Below the pieces are notes generated by a model. That model ran no database searches, was not told the DNA's origin, and saw only the letters and a list, made by a program, of their open reading frames with translations. A program made the translations under genes and the position numbers. From NCBI RefSeq assembly GCF_023715325.1, contig NZ_JAMBNX010000007.1:186001-250000 (forward strand): 64,000 nt of DNA, read 5' to 3'. This stretch comes from Agromyces mediolanus (GTDB lineage Bacteria > Actinomycetota > Actinomycetes > Actinomycetales > Microbacteriaceae). This document shows, piece by piece, positions 34,012 through 43,432 of the stretch; within the stretch, counting starts at the first letter, position 1; every line of letters starts with the position of its first letter.

Positions 34012-36165
34012 CTACTCGCCGCTCGGGTGCGCCTTCGCCCGGTCGATCACCCAGGCGTAGGCGAACGCGCGCTCCCGCCAGGACGCGTAGCGCCCGGAGA
34101 CGCCGCCGTGCCCGGCCGCCATCTCGATCCGCAGCAGCGGCTCGGCGCCGGCCTCGCGCAGCCGGGCCACCCACTTCGCGGGCTCGACGTAGAGCACCCG
34201 GGTGTCGTTCAGCGAGGTCACGGCGAGGATCGGCGGGTAGTGCCGCCCGCCGTGCTCGCCGTCGCGCACGTTCTCGTAGGGCGCGTACGACTTCATGTAC
34301 GCGTACACCTCGGGGTCGTGCAGCGGGTCGCCCCACTCGTCCCACTCGATGACGGTGAGCGGCAGCGAGGGGTCGAGGATCGAGGTCAGCGGGTCGACGA
34401 AGGGCACTTCGGCGAGGATGCCGCTGAACGCGCCGGGCGCGAGGTTCGCGACGGCCCCCATCAGCAGGCCGCCCGCGGAGCCGCCCTGGGCCACGAGTCG
34501 GTCGGGCGCCGTCCAGCCCTCGTCGCTCAGGTGCTGCGCGACCGCGACGAAGTCGCTGAAGGTGTGCTTCTTGCGGAGCTTCTTGCCGTCCTCGTACCAG
34601 TGCCGGCCGAGCTCGCCGCCGCCGCGCACGTGCGCGACGGCGAAGATCATGCCGCGGTCGAGGAGCGACAGCCGGGCGATGCCGAAGCCCGGGTCGATCG
34701 AGTGCTCGTACGAGCCGTAGCCGTAGAGCAGGGTCGGCGCGGGCGTGCCGGGCGTCACGAGGTCGTGCCGGTAGACGAGCGAGATCGGCACCCGCGTGCC
34801 GTCCTCGGCGGTCGCCCACTCGCGGCGCTGCACGTAGCGGCTCGGGTCGTAGTCGCCGAGCACGGGCTGGCGCTTGCGGAGGCGCCGCTCGCCGGTCGCG
34901 ACCACGACGTCGAACACGGTGGAGGGGGTGACGAAGCTGGTGTAGCCGATGCGCAGCTGCGGCTGCGCCCAGTCGGGGTTGCCGCGCACGCCGACGGCGA
35001 AGAGCTCCTCGTCGAAGGCGAGCTCGTGCAGGGTGTCGTCGGCGGTGGCCCCCTCGGGGATGCCGGCAGCGGGAACCTTCGCGATCGCCACCCGGGGCAG
35101 CCCGCCACGGCGGTACTCGACGGCGACGAAGTCGCGGAAGGCATCCACGCCCTCGAGGCGCACCGCCGGGTCGTGCGGCAGCAGCATGCGCCGCGGCCCC
35201 TCCGGGTCGTCGGCGGCGACTGAGACGAGCTCGAAGTTCGGCGCCCCGTCGTTGTGCGTGATGAGCAGCCGGTCGCGGCCGCCCGCGACGAGGTGCTCCA
35301 CGTCGTACTCGACGCCCTCGCGACGCGGCCACACCACGCGGAACTCCCCGGTCGGGTCGTCGGCGTCGAGCAGGCGCGTCTCGCTCGTGATGTTCGAGCC
35401 CGCCTCGATGACGAGGAAGCGGCGGCTCCGGGTCATCCCGACGCCGAGCCAGTAGCGCTCGTCCGGTTCGGTGAAGACCTGCACGTCGACGGATGCCTCG
35501 GTGCCGACCTCGTGCCGCCAGATCGTGTCGGGCCGCCAGGACTCGTCGACGGTCGCGTAGAAGACGTAGCGCCCGCTGGGGTCGAACAGGGCGCCGCCGG
35601 AGGTGCCGGGGATGACGTCGTCGAAGGTGCGGCCGGAGCCGTCGATCGCGCGGATGCGCAGCTCGTAGCGCTCGTCGCCCTCGACGTCGACGCCGCTGAG
35701 CAGCAGCGTGCCGTCGGCGGAGACGTCGAAGCTGCCGAGGGCGAAGAACTCGTGCCCCTCGGCCTCGGCGTTCTCGTCGAACAGCAGCTGCTCGCCGGGC
35801 AGCGCCTCGCCGCCGGACTCGGGCAGCACGGGCGGCTCCCAGTCGTCGGGACCGGCCGCGGGCATCCGGCAGTGGATGCCGTACTCGGCGCCCTCGCGGG
35901 TGCGGGTGAAGTACCACCAGTCGCCCTCGCGCGTCGGCACCGAGAGGTCGGTCTCCTTCGTGCGCGCGCGGATCTCTTCGAAGACCTGCTCGGTGAGGAG
36001 CGAGAGGTGATCCGTCTTCGCCTTGGTGTACGCGTTCTCGGCGTGGAGGTGCGCGATGACGGCGGGGTCGTCCTTCTCGCGCAGCCACTCGTAGTCGTCG
36101 ACCACCACGTCGCCGTGGTGCTCTCGCTGGGTCGGTCGCTTGGGGGTCACGGGCGGAGTGAGCAC
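34012..36165 (-). CDS. ptrB: Oligopeptidase B (S9A prolyl oligopeptidase family)
   Basis: 717-residue cytosolic serine peptidase cleaving short peptides after basic residues. It has the N-terminal HHGDVVVDDYEWLREKDDP, a beta-propeller, and an alpha/beta hydrolase domain with nucleophile Ser near residue 562 (AQGGSAGGLLMG), Asp near 651 (SLNDTRVLYVEPAKW) and His near 685 (AAGHGGVSGRY). GTG start, matching the usual length and N-terminus of the family. Monocistronic, ending in repeat cluster II. Confidence 0.93.
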   Translation of the reverse strand: MLTPPVTPKRPTQREHHGDVVVDDYEWLREKDDPAVIAHLHAENAYTKAKTDHLSLLTEQVFEEIRARTKETDLSVPTREGDWWYFTRTREGAEYGIHCRMPAAGPDDWEPPVLPESGGEALPGEQLLFDENAEAEGHEFFALGSFDVSADGTLLLSGVDVEGDERYELRIRAIDGSGRTFDDVIPGTSGGALFDPSGRYVFYATVDESWRPDTIWRHEVGTEASVDVQVFTEPDERYWLGVGMTRSRRFLVIEAGSNITSETRLLDADDPTGEFRVVWPRREGVEYDVEHLVAGGRDRLLITHNDGAPNFELVSVAADDPEGPRRMLLPHDPAVRLEGVDAFRDFVAVEYRRGGLPRVAIAKVPAAGIPEGATADDTLHELAFDEELFAVGVRGNPDWAQPQLRIGYTSFVTPSTVFDVVVATGERRLRKRQPVLGDYDPSRYVQRREWATAEDGTRVPISLVYRHDLVTPGTPAPTLLYGYGSYEHSIDPGFGIARLSLLDRGMIFAVAHVRGGGELGRHWYEDGKKLRKKHTFSDFVAVAQHLSDEGWTAPDRLVAQGGSAGGLLMGAVANLAPGAFSGILAEVPFVDPLTSILDPSLPLTVIEWDEWGDPLHDPEVYAYMKSYAPYENVRDGEHGGRHYPPILAVTSLNDTRVLYVEPAKWVARLREAGAEPLLRIEMAAGHGGVSGRYASWRERAFAYAWVIDRAKAHPSGE

Positions 36166-36630
36166 GTCCCCACGCTACCCCCGAGCTGCGCAACCCCGAG
36201 CAGGCGGAATCAGCTGGATGCCCCAGCAGGGGAGTCGTTAGCTGCGGAGGCAGGGTCCGCGATCTTCGCTGCACTCATGCAACCACGAACGCACGATCAC
36301 CCAGAAGCTGCCTCATGACCTTCAGGATCGATCTGCTCCAGCCCTCCCGCTGCTTGCTCGCAGGCCGGATGGGTGCCATCAGTCGCCTGGGTCATCATCC
36401 CGCCCCTGTTGATGCCGAGAACGGACCAAGACGCCACCCGGCCCTTCACCCTCGTCACCCAACCCGACCGCGCCTTCGAACCGTTCGCTCTGGCTTCGCG
36501 ATCTGGCTCGCAGCGCTCGTGCTCTGCACGCTCTCCCAGCGGACGCAGAGAGCTCGGGAGGCTCGCTCGTGATACCGATCCGTCAACAGTCGGACCATGA
36601 GCTGGCGTCGCTGTCGCATAATGACGAAGC
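36166..36630. other. 465-base gap at the left edge of a compositional island
   Basis: No convincing gene. Reading frames up to 111 codons exist on both strands but lack ribosome sites and recognisable folds. The composition is visibly softer than in oligopeptidase B, so the boundary of the acquired segment probably lies here. A CATAAT box about 10 bases before the LysR start may be its -10. Confidence 0.4.
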
Positions 36631-37557
36631 ATGGAACGTCGGCAGATCGAGTACTTCCTCGCTGTAGTGGATCACGGTGGGTTCAGTCGTGCCGCGGTTG
36701 AGATGCATGTGACCCAGCCGGCGTTGTCGCAGGGCATTGCTCAGCTTGAGCGGGAACTCGGTGTCCCGTTGTTCAAGCGGACCCCGCGCGGTGCGGTATT
36801 GACTCCTGCGGGGAAGGCGGCTGTGGAGCCGGCGCGCCAGGCGCTGCGGGGTCTGAGCGCGGTGCAGTCTGCCGCTCTGGCGGTCACGGGTTTGGCAGGT
36901 GGGACGCTCGACATCGCATCGCTTCCGACGATGGCGCAGTCGCCCGTGAGCGAGCTGGTTGCTCGGTTCAGGCGGCTCCATCCGAAGGTCACGGTCAGCA
37001 TCCAGTCGCCTGCGCAGACCCGAGTGTCCGAGGTCGCCGAGATGGTTCGAACCGGCTTGTGCGAGCTTGGAGTGACTGAGGGCGAGCCTGATCTGCCCGA
37101 GATGAAAGGCTTCACCACCCTTTCCCTCGGACGGCAGGACTACGTGGCCGCCCTACCTGCAGCGGCACAGCTGAACACGGAAGGGGAGGCCAGCTGGGAG
37201 GAGGTGCTCGCGTGCGGCTTGATCGTCGGGCCTTGGTGGGAGTCTTCGCGCCCCGCAGCCTACCTCGACCGGACTCTCGGTCGGCGGGCGTGGCGGAAGC
37301 ACGTCGCCGTGCGGATCGACCACAGAGACGCGTACCTGCCTCTCGTGGTTTCCGGCGCGGGCGCGGCGATCCTGCCGCGATACTCAGCCCACCTCGCAGG
37401 AGCTGCGGGAGCGAGGGTGGCAGAACTCACCCCAGCCTTGTGGCGATCCGTGGTCATGATTCGGACCGACGACCCGCTTTCGCCCGCTGCGGCCGCCATG
37501 TGGCAGCTCGCCGAGCACCCAGAAACCCAATCTGATCAGGCGCACTCAGGGGCATAA
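36631..37557 (+). CDS. LysR family regulator of the phosphoesterase-transporter operon
   Basis: 308 residues: winged helix at the N-terminus (QIEYFLAVVDHGGFSRAAVE, then VTQPALSQGIAQLERELGVP) and a CbbR/CynR-like effector domain (GGTLDIASLPTMAQSPVSEL). It lies 108 bases upstream of and in the same direction as the operon, and probably activates it in response to the compound imported. It opens a segment with softer base composition (37 G+C in 36661-36720, against 47 in 34441-34500 of oligopeptidase B). Confidence 0.9.
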   Translation: MERRQIEYFLAVVDHGGFSRAAVEMHVTQPALSQGIAQLERELGVPLFKRTPRGAVLTPAGKAAVEPARQALRGLSAVQSAALAVTGLAGGTLDIASLPTMAQSPVSELVARFRRLHPKVTVSIQSPAQTRVSEVAEMVRTGLCELGVTEGEPDLPEMKGFTTLSLGRQDYVAALPAAAQLNTEGEASWEEVLACGLIVGPWWESSRPAAYLDRTLGRRAWRKHVAVRIDHRDAYLPLVVSGAGAAILPRYSAHLAGAAGARVAELTPALWRSVVMIRTDDPLSPAAAAMWQLAEHPETQSDQAHSGA

Positions 37558-37567
37558 GAGCCGCCAA

Positions 37568-37579
37568 TGGGTCCCCATC
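37568..37579. promoter_or_regulatory. Short palindrome between LysR gene and operon
   Basis: ATGGG-TC-CCCAT is a perfect inverted repeat about 90 bases before the metallophosphoesterase start, a reasonable distance for LysR control. Short, and supported by position only. Confidence 0.35.
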
Positions 37580-37665
37580 GAATGATCCGTCTTGTCAGCC
37601 AACGGCGGTAGCGATCTGCTGGACACCAGAGATTTCCCACTCCGGTTCAAAGGTGTTCAACGGAC

Positions 37666-39711
37666 ATGCACAGCCCCAACCCTCGCGATCGCAACCCGAA
37701 CGAGATGCTCTTCTCCTTCGCGGTTATCGCTGATTCCCACATCAACCCGAGCGACGATCAGTCCAGTTCGCCCTGGCACAGCAACCGGCTCGCGAACGAA
37801 CGCTCCGGGCGCGCAGTAGCGGAGCTCAACCGGCTTGCGCCCGCATTCGTGATTCACCTGGGTGACCTCGTTCACCCAGTCCCCGCGCTCGACACGTTCA
37901 TGGCCGCTGCACAGCGCTTCCAGGAGATCTACGCCGACCTCGACGCTCCGCTGCACCTCGTTCCGGGAAACCACGATGTCGGGGATAAGCCCGGCGAGTG
38001 GCTCCCTGCTCAGAGCATCACCGCCTCGTACTTGGAAAGCTACCGGGCGACCTTCGGCCCCGATTACTTCTCGTTCGATCATCGTGACTGTCACTTCGTC
38101 GTCATCAATGCACAGCTCCTGAACTCCGGGCTTTCGGCCGAGGGGGAGCAGCGCGCCTGGCTCATCGAGGATCTCCGTGCAAGTGCCGGAAAGCGTCAGT
38201 TCGTGTTCACGCATTACCCGCCGTTCATCGCCGACCGCACCGAGATCGGGCACTACGACAACATCGACGAGCCCGCGCGGTCGTGGCTGCTCGGCTTGCT
38301 CTCCGAACACGGGGTCGAGGGGCTCTTCGCCGGCCACGTGCACAACTTCTTCTACAACCGCCACCACGACGGGCATCACTACGTCGCGCCATCGGTGGCG
38401 TTCGTCCGACAGGACTACAGTGAGCTGTTCCGCATCGCCCCCGAAGAGGAACACGAATTCGGCCGAAACGATGTCGGAAAGCTCGGCTTCTTCCTCGTCG
38501 AGGTGTACCCGGATCGGCACGTCACTCGAATCATCCGTGACTATCTCGACCGCGGCGAGCCGACGACACCGGCGTTGCATGAGGAGCCAATGGCGCGTGC
38601 GTCCGTGGTCGGTCTGGATGCTCGGCAGATCTGGACCGAACGAACAGCGATCCCGTATGGCGGTGTCGTGGACGAGTTCAACCGCAAACCGATCCGGTCG
38701 GACTACCCGCTCATGGCGCTCTGGGACATCAACGTCTCACGACTTCGTGTTCCGCTGAACGACCTGCTCGATCCCGACATGCGTTCCCGCATGACGGAGC
38801 TCCACACGTCCGGACACCGATTCCAGCTCTTCAACTATGGGCTTCCGGACACGGCCGGTGCTGCCGCGCTGCGCGCACACGCACACCTCGTCTCTGCGCT
38901 CGAGATCATCCAGCCCCCACGGTTGCTGGCCGACGTCGGACAGCACGGCGACCTCGAAGCCTTGCGTCACGCGACCGGCATCGACGTTTATCTCTCTGTC
39001 GTCCACACCTCCGCGGAAGGCTCCCATGGTGGGGACGGGTACGCGCACTACATCCGCCACGGTTTCAACTCGCGTGACGTCTCCGCATTGTCGGAACTCA
39101 ATTCGAGCGACCTCCGGAACGTCATCAGTGGCTTCGCGTTCACCGTCGATTGGACCGAGCACCCCGCCGCGGCGCTGCAGCGCATCGACGCGATCTCCAG
39201 CCAACTCGGCTTGAACGCGCTCGCTCTGGTCCGGCTCGCAGCAGATCACCCGGGGGATAGCATCGAGGACGATTTGCGCATCGCTGACCGAGTCGCCCAC
39301 ACCGCGCTTGCCGCGCACTGCCTGCCTCGCATCAGCGTCACCTTGGACACCTTCGCCGACGTCGATCGAGGCTATTTCCCTCGCCATGGGCTCACCGACC
39401 GACGGTACAACCTCCGACCGGCGGGCCGAGCCCTGAAGCGCCTCGCGGCAGCGCTGCCGGCGATCGTGCCGACCGGTGCCGCACTGACGACCGGCGAAAT
39501 CGATGGGCGACCTTGGACGCGGGCGGGTGACAACGTCGCCATCGTCCCGAGCCCGTCTCCCGTCGGTGCGGATTCCCGGGTCGCTGAGATGCTCACCGAC
39601 CCGACCACGACCATCCTCAACCTCGACGACGGCATCCCCGGGTGGGCCAGCAATGACGCCCCGCCCAGCAGCCCGCTGCTCGTCGGCCGCCCGCTTCAGA
39701 ACGGAGCTTGA
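37666..39711 (+). CDS. Two-domain metallophosphoesterase, first gene of a putative catabolic operon
   Basis: 681 residues. Residues 1-310 are a calcineurin-like phosphoesterase with all five metal motifs: D23-x-H25 (VIADSHINP), GD (HLGDLVH), GNHD (VPGNHDVGD), H (FTHYPP) and GHVH at 223-226. This resembles Icc/cyclic-nucleotide or glycerophosphodiesterases. Residues about 340-610 form a second domain with beta/alpha-barrel-like alternation (LMALWDINVSRLRVPLND, VYLSVVHTSAEGSH, ISGFAFTVDWTEHP) that I do not recognise. No signal peptide. The stop abuts the transporter start; an AAAGGTG site precedes the ATG. Confidence 0.82.
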   Translation: MHSPNPRDRNPNEMLFSFAVIADSHINPSDDQSSSPWHSNRLANERSGRAVAELNRLAPAFVIHLGDLVHPVPALDTFMAAAQRFQEIYADLDAPLHLVPGNHDVGDKPGEWLPAQSITASYLESYRATFGPDYFSFDHRDCHFVVINAQLLNSGLSAEGEQRAWLIEDLRASAGKRQFVFTHYPPFIADRTEIGHYDNIDEPARSWLLGLLSEHGVEGLFAGHVHNFFYNRHHDGHHYVAPSVAFVRQDYSELFRIAPEEEHEFGRNDVGKLGFFLVEVYPDRHVTRIIRDYLDRGEPTTPALHEEPMARASVVGLDARQIWTERTAIPYGGVVDEFNRKPIRSDYPLMALWDINVSRLRVPLNDLLDPDMRSRMTELHTSGHRFQLFNYGLPDTAGAAALRAHAHLVSALEIIQPPRLLADVGQHGDLEALRHATGIDVYLSVVHTSAEGSHGGDGYAHYIRHGFNSRDVSALSELNSSDLRNVISGFAFTVDWTEHPAAALQRIDAISSQLGLNALALVRLAADHPGDSIEDDLRIADRVAHTALAAHCLPRISVTLDTFADVDRGYFPRHGLTDRRYNLRPAGRALKRLAAALPAIVPTGAALTTGEIDGRPWTRAGDNVAIVPSPSPVGADSRVAEMLTDPTTTILNLDDGIPGWASNDAPPSSPLLVGRPLQNGA

Positions 39712-39713
39712 CC

Positions 39714-41171
39714 GTGATCGGCAGAAGAGCACGCACGGCGACACCAGCGCAGACCAAGGATCCGTCGGACGGGTTCGTCCAACGGATCGCGCTTCGTCTT
39801 GCCGCCTGGATGGAACGATGGTTCCCCGACACCTTCGTCTTCGCCCTGATCGCCGTCGTCATCACAGGCATTGGTGCTGCCGCGATCGGCGCCTCCCCAA
39901 AGGCCATCGTCACCGCATTCGGTGGCGGCTTCTGGGATCTCATCACCTTCACCCTCCAGGTGTCCGTCGTTGCGATCAGTGGTCATATCGTCGCAACCTC
40001 GCCGCCTGCACAGCGAGCAATCACCTGGCTCGCGCGCATCCCAAAGAACGGGCGTCAAGCGGTCGCGTTCGTCGCTCTCCTCGCCACATCCCTCTCCCTC
40101 ATCAACTGGGCCATCTCATTGATCTTCAGCGCCCTGCTCACCAAGGAGCTTGCGCGCAGGCGCCCCGACATGGACTATCGTGCCGCTGGTGCCGCATCCT
40201 TCCTCGGGCTCGGCGGCGTCTGGGCGATGGGACTCAGCTCCGCCCCAGCGCAGATGATGGCGAACGAAGCGAGCATGCCGCCCTCTCTGCTGCCGATCTC
40301 GGGGGTCCTTCCGTTCTCCCAGACGGTGTTCCTCCCGCAGTCGCTGCTGCTGACCGGTGTGCTGATCGTTCTCACCGTTCTGATCGCGTACATGTCGGCC
40401 CCGAACGCCAACCGCGCTCTGACGGCGCAGGCAATGCACATCGACCTCGAGTACGAAATCCGCAAGGAGGAGCCGCGAACCCCGCGTCGGCCCGGTGAGT
40501 GGTTCGACACATCGTGGATCCTCCCCGCGATCGTCGTCACCGCAGGTGCCGCCTACCTCGTCATGGTCGTCATCGACCGTGGCTGGTGGCTCGCGCTGTC
40601 CGACCTCAACACGTACAACTTCCTGTTCATCATGCTCGGACTCGCCCTTCATGGCACTCCGCGGAAGTTCTTGAAGGCTGCAGCCTCGGCGATCCCATCG
40701 GTCGGTGGAGTGCTGATCCAGTTCCCCTTCTACGCAGGCGTCGCCGCCATCCTCACCCAGGCCGCCGCACCCGACGGGACCACCCTCTCGTCAACGCTCG
40801 GACATGCGTTCTCACAGGTCGCGTCAGGCAGCCTTCTCGCCCCTGTCCTGGCGATCTACTCCGTCGTGCTCGGGATCTTCCTTCCCTCCGGCGGGGGCAA
40901 GTGGATCATCGAGGCGCCCTACGTGATGCAAGCGGCCAACGACGCGCACCTCCACCTCGGCTGGGCGGTCCAGGTCTACAACGCCGCCGAAGCACTCCCG
41001 AACCTCATCAACCCGTTCTGGATGCTCCCCGTCCTGGGCCTCCTCGGCCTGCGCGCGCGACACGTCGTCGGCTTCACCTTCCTCCAATTCCTGGTTCATC
41101 TGCCGGTGGTGCTGATCATGGTGTGGTTGCTGTCCGGCACACTCGAGTACATCCCGCCGGTGATCCCGTGA
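39714..41171 (+). CDS. AtoE-type short-chain fatty acid/carboxylate transporter
   Basis: 485-residue membrane protein of the AtoE (TIGR00366) family, about 12 helices. Landmarks are MERWFPDTFVFALIAVVITG, SLINWAISLIFSALL, SFLGLGGVWAMGLSSAPAQ and FLPSGGGKWIIEAPY. The family imports short-chain carboxylates, so the operon probably takes up a small organic acid or an acid-bearing phosphoester. GTG 39714 has GGAG eight bases upstream; a TTG at 39708 overlapping the preceding stop is the alternative. Confidence 0.85.
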   Translation: MIGRRARTATPAQTKDPSDGFVQRIALRLAAWMERWFPDTFVFALIAVVITGIGAAAIGASPKAIVTAFGGGFWDLITFTLQVSVVAISGHIVATSPPAQRAITWLARIPKNGRQAVAFVALLATSLSLINWAISLIFSALLTKELARRRPDMDYRAAGAASFLGLGGVWAMGLSSAPAQMMANEASMPPSLLPISGVLPFSQTVFLPQSLLLTGVLIVLTVLIAYMSAPNANRALTAQAMHIDLEYEIRKEEPRTPRRPGEWFDTSWILPAIVVTAGAAYLVMVVIDRGWWLALSDLNTYNFLFIMLGLALHGTPRKFLKAAASAIPSVGGVLIQFPFYAGVAAILTQAAAPDGTTLSSTLGHAFSQVASGSLLAPVLAIYSVVLGIFLPSGGGKWIIEAPYVMQAANDAHLHLGWAVQVYNAAEALPNLINPFWMLPVLGLLGLRARHVVGFTFLQFLVHLPVVLIMVWLLSGTLEYIPPVIP

Positions 41172-41198
41172 ACCGACCCGCTGAACAGGAGCGTCAAA

Positions 41199-42137
41199 GT
41201 GACCGCTGAAGCCACCACAGTGCGTGGTCCGTTGAACGCGGACGAACTCGGCCGGACCCTCGTCCATGAACACCTCGCTGTCAACATGATGCGCGAGCTC
41301 CGCGCACCCGGACTGCTCAACGACGGAGTGCAGGCTCTCGCAGAGCTCAAGCGCTTCCGAGAGCACGGCGGCCGGACCGTCGTAGACCTGACGAACCGCA
41401 GCCTCGGACAGCACCCTCTCGCGCTTCGTCGCTTCAGCGAACAGTCCGGGGTGAACATCATCCTCGGCACGGGCCTATACCGGCAGGCCTACTTCGACCG
41501 CGATCAGCTCGACCGCACCAGCACCAGGGCTCTGGCGGACCTCTTCGTGCGAGATCTCACCGACGGCATCGACGAGACCGGCGTCCGTGCCGGCATCATC
41601 GGCGAGATTGGCACCGAGGTACAAATGACAGCGCAAGAAGAGCGGGTCTTTCGAGCCGCGGCTCTCGCGCACCTGGAAACCGGGACCACCATCAGCACGC
41701 ACGCGGCACACTGGCCTGTCGGGCTGGACCAGCTCGATCTCCTTGAATCCTGCGGAGTGGCCCCCCGGAGCGTCATCATCGGCCACTGCGACAGCGTCGG
41801 GTCCCCGGAATGGACACGCGTCGCGGACATCACCGATTACCACGCTGCGATCGCGGCGCGCGGCGCATACGTAGCCTTCGACCACATCCGCCGGGGCGCC
41901 GACCTCCAGCGCCGAGTCGAATACATCATGGCCATGGTCGACAGCGGCCGAATCCACCAGATCCTGCTCTCCCACGACGCTGCGTTCCGACCAGACCTTA
42001 CAAGCAACGGCGGAGACGGCCTGACGCTGATCTTCACAGGGCTCGTGCCCCGCCTGATCGAACGAGGACTCAGCGACGCCGATATCGACACGATCCTCGT
42101 CGAGAACCCCCGAAGAGCACTGACCGGTATGGAATAG
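41199..42137 (+). CDS. Phosphotriesterase-family metal-dependent hydrolase
   Basis: 312-residue amidohydrolase-fold enzyme of the PTE/PHP family. Metal ligands in order: H23-x-H25 (TLVHEHLAV), bridging Glu136 (IIGEIGTE, Glu in place of the carbamylated Lys of true phosphotriesterases, as in PHP), His168 (STHAAHW), His196 (IIGHCDS) and Asp260 (LSHDAAF). Relatives hydrolyse phosphoesters, lactones or carboxylesters. CAGGAGC precedes the GTG. It is the last gene of the operon, 27 bases after the transporter, and is followed by a strong terminator. Confidence 0.87.
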   Translation: MTAEATTVRGPLNADELGRTLVHEHLAVNMMRELRAPGLLNDGVQALAELKRFREHGGRTVVDLTNRSLGQHPLALRRFSEQSGVNIILGTGLYRQAYFDRDQLDRTSTRALADLFVRDLTDGIDETGVRAGIIGEIGTEVQMTAQEERVFRAAALAHLETGTTISTHAAHWPVGLDQLDLLESCGVAPRSVIIGHCDSVGSPEWTRVADITDYHAAIAARGAYVAFDHIRRGADLQRRVEYIMAMVDSGRIHQILLSHDAAFRPDLTSNGGDGLTLIFTGLVPRLIERGLSDADIDTILVENPRRALTGME

Positions 42138-42166
42138 CGCGGCCAGAACCTCGACCAAGACAAACC

Positions 42167-42206
42167 ACAATTGGCTCGGCCTCTTCGGAGGGGCCGGGCC
42201 AATTGT
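42167..42206 (+). terminator. Strong hairpin terminator after the phosphotriesterase-family gene
   Basis: A 15-base stem (ACAATTGGC-t-CGGCC against GGCC-g-GGCCAATTGT, one G-T pair) with a 10-base loop begins 29 bases after the stop. It closes the operon. Confidence 0.75.
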
Positions 42207-42282
42207 CGTCTGCGGGGCCCCTCAGTGGGCTCTGGGTTGGTGGGCGGCTCATCGGCGCGCAATTCTTCAGCATCAGCACTAG

Positions 42283-42390
42283 GGGCCCGCGCAGATACGG
42301 TTCGCGCTGATCCTCATCAACCTGATGCTGTTCTCCATCGCCCTGATATGGCTCCTCAACGAGTCGCTCGGGGATTCTTCACCGAACTGA
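42283..42390 (+). pseudogene. 3' remnant of an integral membrane protein gene
   Basis: A 35-codon open stretch from 42283 to the TGA at 42388-42390 reads RFALILINLMLFSIALIWL and then LNESLGDSSPN, an obvious membrane helix with a polar tail. A TAG at 42280-42282 closes the frame upstream and no start codon or ribosome site fits. It looks like the tail of a gene cut off when the neighbouring segment arrived or was deleted. The parent family is not identifiable from so little. Confidence 0.55.
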
Positions 42391-42520
42391 CCGGCCGATC
42401 GCAGTGGCCTGTGAGGCGATGGCGCGCCTGTGATTCACCTGGCCGTCGGATACCGCGGCATCCTCCCATCAGCGCGCGCACGAGCAACGATCACGAATCC
42501 GTTTCGACGCGCGGGCAGGC

Positions 42521-42539
42521 TTAGGTTAGCCTTAGCTGC
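42521..42539. promoter_or_regulatory. DtxR/IdeR iron box of the efeUOB operon
   Basis: TTAGGTTAGCCTTAGCTGC matches the DtxR/IdeR consensus TTAGGTTAGSCTAACCTAA at 15 of 19 positions, with a perfect left half. It lies 42 bases before efeU and predicts repression by iron. Confidence 0.8.
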
Positions 42540-42580
42540 TCTCACCAGAGCGCCCTTCCATCCAGACCCGGGAGACGCCC

Positions 42581-43432
42581 GTGCTCGCCAACTACCTGAT
42601 CGGCCTCCGCGAAGGCCTCGAGGCCGGTCTCATCGTCGGCATCCTGGTGGCGTACCTCGGCAAGACCGGCCGACGCGACCTGCTCGGCCGGCTGTGGATC
42701 GGCATCGGCATCGCCGTCGCCGTCTCCCTCGGCGTCGGCGCCGTGCTCACCTGGGGCCCCTACGCGATGACGTTCCAGGCGCAGGAGATCCTCGGCGGCG
42801 TGCTCTCGCTCCTCGCCGTCGCGATGGTCACCTGGATGATCTTCTGGATGGGCACCCATGGCCGCACCCTCTCGAGCGAGCTGCGCGGACAGGTGGATGC
42901 CGCGATCGAGCGTTCCTCCTGGGCCATCGTCGTGTTGGGCGCCCTCTCGGTCGGTCGCGAGGGCGTCGAGACCGCGCTCTTCGTGTGGGCGAACGTCGCC
43001 GGCGGCAGCGACCCCGTGCTCGGCACGCTCGGCGCCCTCGCCGGCATCGCCACCGCGGTCGTCATCGCCTGGGGCATCTCGAAGGGCCTCGTGCGCTTCA
43101 ACCTCGGCACCTTCTTCACCTGGACCGGGCTCTTCCTGATCCTCGTCGCAGCCGGCGTGCTCGCCTACGGCATCGGCGACCTGCAGGAGGCCTCGGTGAT
43201 CCCCGGCTGGGGCACGCCCGCCTACAGCCTCACCCAGATCATCCCCGCCGGTGGCTGGCTCGACAGCCTCCTCGGCGGCATCTTCAACTTCACCCCGGAG
43301 CCCACCTGGGCGCAGGTCATCGGCTGGACCGCCTACGTCGCGGTCACGATGGCCCTCTACCTCGTGATGCTGCGCCGCCGGCACACCGCAGCAGCGGCGC
43401 CCCCCGCCGCTGCGGCCGCCGCAGCCGGCTGA
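42581..43432 (+). CDS. efeU: Iron permease EfeU (FTR1/OFeT family)
   Basis: 283-residue seven-helix permease for ferrous/ferric iron uptake. The two family iron-binding motifs REGLE (residues 10-14) and REGVE (near 127) are intact. A hydrophobic tail ends in an Ala-rich stretch. GTG start with GGGAG upstream. First gene of efeUOB, preceded by the DtxR box, so it is expected to be expressed in iron limitation. Confidence 0.95.
   Translation: MLANYLIGLREGLEAGLIVGILVAYLGKTGRRDLLGRLWIGIGIAVAVSLGVGAVLTWGPYAMTFQAQEILGGVLSLLAVAMVTWMIFWMGTHGRTLSSELRGQVDAAIERSSWAIVVLGALSVGREGVETALFVWANVAGGSDPVLGTLGALAGIATAVVIAWGISKGLVRFNLGTFFTWTGLFLILVAAGVLAYGIGDLQEASVIPGWGTPAYSLTQIIPAGGWLDSLLGGIFNFTPEPTWAQVIGWTAYVAVTMALYLVMLRRRHTAAAAPPAAAAAAAG

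What the first reader, a model, noticed from the sequence alone, without database searches (positions are those of the whole stretch)
36631..42206. LysR-controlled phosphoesterase - AtoE transporter - phosphotriesterase-family operon, possibly a new catabolic system
Seen: a LysR gene, then three genes with gaps of 2 and 27 bases encoding a two-domain metallophosphoesterase, an AtoE-family carboxylate transporter and a PTE-family hydrolase, closed by a strong terminator. Known: AtoE proteins import short-chain carboxylates; both enzymes are binuclear-metal hydrolases that could act in sequence on a phosphorylated or lactone-type substrate. Inferred: uptake and stepwise hydrolysis of an organophosphate or phosphorylated small acid. 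I know no described pathway with this gene order.
Basis: partly seen in the sequence, partly recalled or inferred. Interest (0 to 1): 0.7.

Follow-up and report, generated by a model that had tools for sequence, protein, structure and literature searches.

The report
Mobile four-gene acid-uptake and hydrolysis cassette
A compact, acquired set of four genes (a switch, an importer for small acids and two metal-dependent cutting enzymes) sits between two genes that are neighbours in related genomes; the same set occurs in a Streptomyces, so it looks like a real but uncharacterised nutrient-breakdown module whose substrate is unknown.

Summary
LysR, two-domain metallophosphoesterase (MPE), AtoE-type permease and PTE-family hydrolase lie in a row (gaps 108, 2, 27 bases), followed by an 18-pair hairpin without the U-run of a standard terminator. 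The block is an acquired island of about 6.3 kb: in 25 of 29 congener loci examined the flanking genes start 107-222 bp apart, here 6,416 bp; cassette GC is 65%, window 72%.

The same four genes lie together in Streptomyces albipurpureus (58-75% protein identity) with LysR moved downstream, so the set is a real unit. It is rare: the MPE is in 1 of 60 genomes of the genus and 1 of 295 of the Streptomyces genus, each time only the known one.

The MPE belongs to a broad family: a GpdQ/Rv0805-like domain fused to a glycoside-hydrolase-like barrel without a convincing Pfam match. A TctC or TctA carboxylate-transporter gene adjoins it in 28 of 80 loci, a sulfatase in 7. The PTE has the Glu-type metal site of PHP and PTER, not the Lys type of organophosphatases (roles partly recalled).

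Best reading: a module that imports and hydrolyses a small organic acid. The substrate is unknown; the organophosphate idea is not favoured.

The parts
36186..42494 (.). acquired island carrying the cassette (approximate ends)
   Evidence: blastn to the two closest congeners breaks at 36183/36185 and 42495; GC 64.8% for the cassette against 72.0% for the window
36631..37557 (+). LysR-type regulator, 308 aa
   Evidence: Pfam HTH_1, LysR_substrate; 66% to Streptomyces L076
37666..39711 (+). two-domain metallophosphoesterase, 681 aa
   Evidence: Metallophos; 58% over nearly the whole length in L076; AlphaFold model pLDDT 90
37711..38541 (+). MPE domain, about aa 16-292; D23 H25 D67 N102 H183 H224 H226 (metal-ligand roles recalled)
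   Evidence: all seven residues in 69 of 69 aligned sequences; Foldseek best Rv0805, GpdQ
38599..39708 (+). second domain, aa 312-681: glycoside-hydrolase-like barrel with a small beta domain, no convincing Pfam match
   Evidence: R340 K341 R344 D346 R375 D567 R568 Y570 D578 invariant in 69 of 69
39714..41171 (+). AtoE-type (SCFA_trans) permease, 485 aa
   Evidence: SCFA_trans 4.9e-83; 74-75% to L076
41199..42137 (+). PTE-family hydrolase, 312 aa; H23 H25 E136 H168 H196 D260 (metal-ligand roles recalled)
   Evidence: PTE 5.1e-66; alignment to the phosphotriesterase homology protein; motif positions; 72% to L076
42167..42206 (+). strong hairpin after the last gene, 18 pairs, no U-run
   Evidence: z -7.3; not found by terminator scan

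Best explanation
A horizontally acquired, self-contained catabolic module. The LysR protein senses a small organic acid or its breakdown product and switches on the three genes behind it. The AtoE-type permease brings the acid in. The PTE-family enzyme, which has the Glu-bridged metal site of PHP/PTER, opens an amide, ester or lactone bond. The two-domain MPE cleaves a phosphodiester (or related oxyacid ester) of the same compound or a companion compound; its barrel domain either binds the organic part or does a second step. The products enter central metabolism. Shown by computation: the four-gene unit, its families and conserved sites, its acquisition, its recurrence in a second genus, and the carboxylate-transporter neighbourhood of the MPE family. 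Inferred: uptake direction, order of steps, bonds cut, LysR control. The substrate is not known.
For: Same four genes together in S. albipurpureus at 58-75% protein identity with LysR relocated, so the link survives rearrangement. Codon positions 1 and 2 are far better conserved than 3 for LysR, MPE and PTE (the AtoE row there is out of frame and void). In S. albipurpureus the permease ATG overlaps the MPE stop. The MPE family adjoins (within 600 bp) a TctC or TctA gene in 28 of 80 loci; TctC density is 21.7 per 100 kb within 600 bp, then 5.3, 5.7, 1.7 and 2.4 in bins out to 10 kb. Of ten neighbourhoods of permease relatives looked at, four hold small-molecule catabolic genes on the permease's strand: CoA transferase and thiolase (53%), amidase (54%), molybdopterin oxidoreductase with ornithine-cyclodeaminase-family gene (53%). 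LysR relatives on plasmids stand beside an amidase (52%) or tartrate dehydrogenase, DctA and glycerate kinase (37%). Putative metal ligands intact in MPE and PTE.
Against: Only two instances of the full set are known, so co-occurrence rests on one comparison. In 79 of 80 MPE loci no AtoE or PTE relative lies within the stretch held, nor in the four others read, so neither is a standing partner of the MPE. The probes were picked from genes already seen within four genes of the MPE, which favours nearness, and the 80 loci are not independent; the ProV probe, picked the same way, shows no enrichment. The other six permease neighbourhoods say nothing on the substrate (two genomes; carry no annotation). 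Neighbours of permease, PTE and MPE relatives differ widely. No expression or assay data; no LysR site was sought, and a simple scan found no promoter.
Confidence: 0.55

Rival explanations
1. Scavenging of quaternary-amine (choline/betaine-type) esters: the MPE cleaves a phosphoester of a choline- or betaine-like acid.
For: A sulfatase lies within 600 bp of the MPE in 7 of 80 loci. 3 of the 4 sulfatases tested pass the choline-sulfatase cut-off; they lie in L100, L101 and L113. L097 has ProX- and ProW-like genes and a GbcA-like Rieske protein beside the MPE, all below their cut-offs.
Against: Sulfatase in only 14 of 80 loci at any distance held. The ProV-type ABC signal is not enriched near the MPE (1.1 per 100 kb within 600 bp against 2.7 at 6-10 kb). 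The fourth sulfatase (L092) fails the cut-off. No such gene stands in the window cassette.
Confidence: 0.13
2. Degradation or detoxification of an organophosphate or a toxic natural product: the PTE and a GpdQ-like MPE act on a phosphotriester and then its diester, and the cassette moves as opd genes do (the last is recalled).
For: Acquired, rare, compact cassette; the MPE domain's best folds include GpdQ. That GpdQ accepts organophosphate diesters is recalled.
Against: The PTE has Glu136 where OPH-type enzymes have a carboxylated Lys (the Lys is recalled). It scores 111 bits against an OPH cut-off of 500. A permease for small acids would not be needed for neutral triesters (inference).
Confidence: 0.12
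3. The MPE is a signalling phosphodiesterase (cyclic-nucleotide type) that tunes the transporter and PTE rather than a catabolic enzyme.
For: Best Foldseek match is Rv0805, recalled as a cyclic-nucleotide phosphodiesterase; the best NCBIfam match is a 2',3'-cyclic-nucleotide phosphodiesterase (24.7 bits, cut-off 400).
Against: The fused barrel domain with invariant charged residues and the transporter and sulfatase neighbourhoods fit substrate handling better; the NCBIfam matches are very weak (24.7 of 400 and 17.9 of 225 bits).
Confidence: 0.05
4. Chance neighbours without shared function.
For: Only two genomes known to carry the set; 79 of 80 MPE loci lack AtoE and PTE.
Against: All four genes kept in two genera with changed order, and they are the only family-confirmed genes of the island.
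Confidence: 0.04

Closest known systems
ato-type operon (CoA transferase A/B, thiolase, AtoE)
   Same: Permease of the same family; the 53% relative in G233 stands behind two CoA-transferase genes and a thiolase gene
   Different: No CoA transferase or thiolase here; two metal hydrolases instead
Phosphotriesterase homology protein (PHP; E. coli yhfV by recall) and mammalian PTER
   Same: PTE fold and Glu at the bridge position; PHP is the best solved match, 1.2e-46. PTER is an N-acetyltaurine hydrolase with E169 at its metal site (PMC11374699, passages seen)
   Different: Below the cut-off of the phosphotriesterase-related model (188 against 486 bits); different gene company. No direct alignment to PTER was made
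GpdQ / Rv0805 phosphodiesterases
   Same: MPE domain fold; putative metal ligands kept in 69 of 69
   Different: Fused to a second, barrel domain; 18-19% identity only
Glycoside hydrolases of the GH39/GH5/GH10/GH30 kind (PslG and others; clan GH-A by recall)
   Same: Second domain best Foldseek match 5bx9 PslG, E 3e-11, TM 0.54, rmsd 9.3
   Different: No sequence match to any solved chain and no convincing Pfam match; the pair of conserved catalytic Glu is not evident; fucosidases of another kind are also among the top 50 matches
MPE-TctC/TctA gene pairs, mostly in Pseudomonadota (uncharacterised)
   Same: Same two-domain MPE beside a carboxylate importer
   Different: TTT transporter and IclR, ROK or GntR regulators rather than AtoE, PTE and this LysR

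Membership tests
LysR-type regulator | HTH_1 and LysR substrate domains | tested here: met
SCFA_trans / AtoE permease | Pfam SCFA_trans above cut-off | tested here: met
   280 against 27 bits; NCBIfam TIGR00366 below cut-off, 275 against 576
SCFA_trans / AtoE permease | transports short-chain carboxylates | not testable with these tools
   needs an uptake assay
PTE family, Glu type (PHP/PTER-like) | HxH, bridging Glu, two His, Asp (roles recalled) | tested here: met
   H23 H25 E136 H168 H196 D260
Organophosphate hydrolase (OPH) | carboxylated Lys bridge (recalled) and OPH model cut-off | tested here: not met
   Glu at the bridge position; 111 against 500 bits; no alignment to OPH was printed
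Calcineurin-like phosphoesterase | Pfam Metallophos and metal ligands | tested here: met
GH-A glycoside hydrolase (second domain) | barrel fold of that clan | tested here: met
   Foldseek E 3e-11, TM 0.54, rmsd 9.3; moderate score only
GH-A glycoside hydrolase (second domain) | two conserved catalytic Glu at ends of strands 4 and 7 (recalled) | tested here: inconclusive
   Among conserved acidic positions Glu prevails at 325, 337, 354, 413 and partly 471; none lies near the strand at 517-523; strands were counted by eye and no superposition was made
Known catabolic pathway | described gene order | tested here: inconclusive
   nothing fitting in the listings; open-licence PMC only, listings were cut at 12 of 25 and 10 of 28 papers
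Genomic island | empty site in relatives, compositional shift | tested here: met
Mobile element of known type | integrase, transposase or terminal repeats in the window copy | tested here: not met
   no shared repeat of 10 bp or more between 36121-36640 and 42131-42620; the four genes carry no recombinase domain; the end stretches match no plasmid record

The most novel reading that the evidence does not exclude
The MPE plus glycoside-hydrolase-like barrel is a new bifunctional enzyme family that takes apart an imported phosphodiester-linked organic acid in two steps in one protein. It is plugged into different importers and regulators across bacteria, and the window cassette is a transferable version in which a PTER-like enzyme first releases the acid from an N-acyl or lactone form.
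Probability: 0.15. Interest if true: 0.75.

Novelty: new variant of a known kind. Interest (0 to 1): 0.48.

Why it matters
It gives a minimal, transferable four-gene unit whose substrate can be sought directly: one regulator, one importer, two enzymes. It also points to a widespread two-domain phosphoesterase family tied to carboxylate importers, for which I found no description. Solving the substrate would name a nutrient used by many bacteria and give a function to a barrel domain that has no convincing Pfam match.

Tried and rejected
Chance juxtaposition was set aside after the Streptomyces locus. IMG/VR: 125 pattern matches in viral contigs, none a relative. Plasmid copies of the island ends: no match. 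MPE on plasmids: 88 records with a match, 2 of them over at least 80% of the query. A first single-sequence scan of genome contigs found no relative among 28 pattern matches; the alignment scan gave 80 loci. ProV-type ABC genes looked like a partner (21 of 80 loci) but are not enriched next to the MPE, so that lead was dropped.

Limits of the counts. My GC-based gene caller found the MPE in 72 of 84 loci, so the maps are rough and the counts relied on come from tblastn. Gene labels are mine; only the representatives scanned were checked. In one search the AtoE pair was read one base out of frame and is void; the right comparison is. Alignment A2 holds the window and 68 of the 80 loci. Twelve were left out: one with a stop inside the match (L110), two cut by a contig end (L106, L122), and nine by my choice, mostly as seeming near-copies of a kept row (not measured). 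Empty site: 34 congeners have an FTR1 match at 1e-60, with 35 places, of which 29 came as loci besides the window's own. In 26 of 29 the oligopeptidase gene was found, 25 at 107-222 bp and one (L202, where a second FTR1 copy lies between) at 1,089 bp; in 3 (L182, L185, L198) it was not found in the 1.5 kb flank. Whole-genome searches score only the best few candidates per genome (for example 3, 2, 4). The pdb_via library was not available. Two paper searches led nowhere: one search was too broad (59,456 papers) and one search gave only PTER papers of use.

Full report
Observation. Pfam confirms each family, and none of the NCBIfam models shown reaches its cut-off (for LysR 25 of 54 matches were shown). 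The hairpin after the last gene has 18 pairs, two of them G-U, and folds far better than shuffles (z -7.3), but it lacks a U-run and the scan for standard terminators does not list it.

It is an acquired island. The cassette has 64.8% GC in a window of 72.0%. In five of five congeners whose regions I read, the prolyl-oligopeptidase gene left of the cassette and the FTR1 gene right of it are neighbours; the two closest (FTR1 96% identical) align to the window up to 36183/36185 and again from 42495. Over 29 congener FTR1 loci (29 of the 35 congener places), the oligopeptidase gene was found in 26: in 25 the two starts lie 107-222 bp apart, in one 1,089 bp, and in 3 it was not found within the 1.5 kb flank. 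In the window the starts are 6,416 bp apart (coordinates). No repeat of 10 bp or more is shared by the two ends, and the cassette's genes carry no recombinase domain, so how it moved is unknown.

It is a unit. A scan of the species-genome collection with an alignment of five MPEs kept the best 80 loci. In one, Streptomyces albipurpureus CWNU-1 (L076), MPE, permease and PTE lie in the same order with LysR behind them instead of in front: identities 58% (MPE), 74-75% (permease), 72% (PTE), 66% (LysR). Its flanks hold helix-turn-helix domains that I read as a transposase on one side and an IS110 transposase piece on the other, with an acyl-CoA dehydrogenase gene beyond. Third codon positions are much less conserved than first and second in LysR, MPE and PTE, as expected for working genes. 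The set is rare. With the MPE as probe: 1 of 60 genomes of the window's genus, its own; 1 of 295 of the genus of the S. albipurpureus genome, its own; in 299 genomes of the family only the window's own full length, with partial matches in 16 others; in 396 of the phylum two further relatives of about 40% over most of the length, besides many partial ones. Both of those have unrelated neighbours. The other 79 loci hold no AtoE or PTE relative, nor do L068-L071.

The MPE. The protein has two domains. The first keeps D23, H25, D67, N102, H183, H224 and H226, by recall the metal ligands of the family, in 69 of 69 sequences; its best folds are Rv0805 and GpdQ. The second has no solved relative by sequence at E up to 1 and no convincing Pfam match: 13.8 bits against a cut-off of 27 for the window, and over 69 members no family matched more than two, best E 4e-4. 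Its model (pLDDT 89) resembles glycoside hydrolases, best PslG (E 3e-11, TM 0.54, rmsd 9.3), then GH39, GH30, GH10 and GH5 types and some fucosidases (the clan label is recalled). R340, K341, R344, D346, R375, D567, R568, Y570 and D578 are invariant in 69 of 69, so the domain is likely active or ligand-binding, but the usual pair of catalytic Glu is not evident in the alignment.

Neighbours of the MPE. In the 80 loci a TctC gene lies within 600 bp in 20, 19 on the same strand; density is 21.7 per 100 kb there, then 5.3, 5.7, 1.7 and 2.4 in bins out to 10 kb. TctA: 8.7, then 1.4, 0, 2.1, 0.5. IclR (on the opposite strand): 16.3, then 0 to 0.4. Sulfatases: 9.8, then 1.9, 0, 1.7, 0. ProV-type ABC: 1.1, then 2.9, 1.5, 1.3, 2.7, so no enrichment. 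The probes were chosen among genes seen near the MPE, which favours nearness, and the loci are not independent; the flat ProV result shows that the choice alone does not make the pattern. TctC or TctA is adjacent in 28 of 80. Three of four sulfatases tested pass the choline-sulfatase cut-off. The family therefore often goes with import of an acid; in the window the importer is of another family, AtoE.

The permease and PTE. Ten neighbourhoods of permease relatives were looked at. CoA transferases and thiolase (53%), amidase (54%) and molybdopterin oxidoreductase with an ornithine-cyclodeaminase-family gene (53%) are telling; two genomes (the last only 44%) are not, and carry no annotation. The clade thus seems to serve several small acids. 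The PTE has H23, H25, E136, H168, H196 and D260, aligned with the same residues of the phosphotriesterase homology protein. PTER is reported with E169 at its metal site and hydrolyses an amide, N-acetyltaurine (PMC11374699, passages). This makes an amide or lactone more likely than a phosphotriester. Nearest PTE relatives elsewhere (45-48%) stand in unlike company. The nearest LysR relative on plasmids (52%) stands beside an amidase and a TauE/SafE exporter; the next (39%) is in an unannotated record; one of 37% is beside tartrate dehydrogenase, DctA and glycerate kinase.

Mechanism. I hold most likely that LysR switches on uptake of a small acid by the AtoE-type permease, and that the two hydrolases release usable parts: the PTE at an amide, ester or lactone bond, the MPE at a phosphodiester or similar. 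The unit, its acquisition and its families are shown; uptake, bonds cut, control and order are inferred; the substrate is open. I give 0.55 to this reading in its general form.

Literature. Searches of open-licence PMC text for the gene combinations gave nothing that, by title and start of abstract, describes it (two searches returned no paper; two searches listed 12 of 25 and 10 of 28). Subscription papers and preprints were not searched. I saw passages of PMC11374699 and PMC11378808, and only listings of the rest.

Verdict. A real, transferable, apparently undescribed catabolic cassette; a new variant of a known kind (regulator, importer, hydrolases) with one unusual part, the MPE fused to a glycoside-hydrolase-like barrel. 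Interest 0.48.

Noticed in passing
L166 3987-11375, L167 6283-17070, L168 3792-11801: In three genomes a PTE relative (46-48%) sits in a larger cluster with a second PTE relative; from sequence look only (no family scan) also an oxygenase, a reductase, an aldehyde dehydrogenase and a glutamine-synthetase-like gene.
   Followed up: partly
L209 2556-8422, L211 1602-7431: Relatives of the permease stand beside a molybdopterin oxidoreductase and an ornithine-cyclodeaminase-family gene in Paraburkholderia and Rhodococcus plasmids, near proline catabolism genes in the latter.
   Followed up: no
L216 324-4462: The closest LysR on plasmids (52%) is in a Shinella plasmid between a TauE/SafE exporter and an amidase, with an IS6 transposase next to them.
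   Followed up: partly
L094, L101, L103, L109: TctC, sulfatase and MPE in a tight row, with ROK regulator and TctB nearby in three of the four (labels mine): a recurrent unit in assemblies labelled Rhodospirillaceae, Gemmatimonadota and Alphaproteobacteria.
   Followed up: partly
L125, L143, L154: Three loci share MPE followed by a gene labelled CaiB-type by eye and a 3-hydroxyacyl-CoA-dehydrogenase-type gene (Pfam for L125), with an enolase-like gene on the other side.
   Followed up: no
L169 7783-10955: Two PTE-family genes in tandem (37-41% to the window PTE) next to genes that look like CoA transferase A and B subunits by sequence, not scanned.
   Followed up: no
L110 3379-5169: One MPE relative has a stop inside the matched stretch, near its end; described only.
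   Followed up: no
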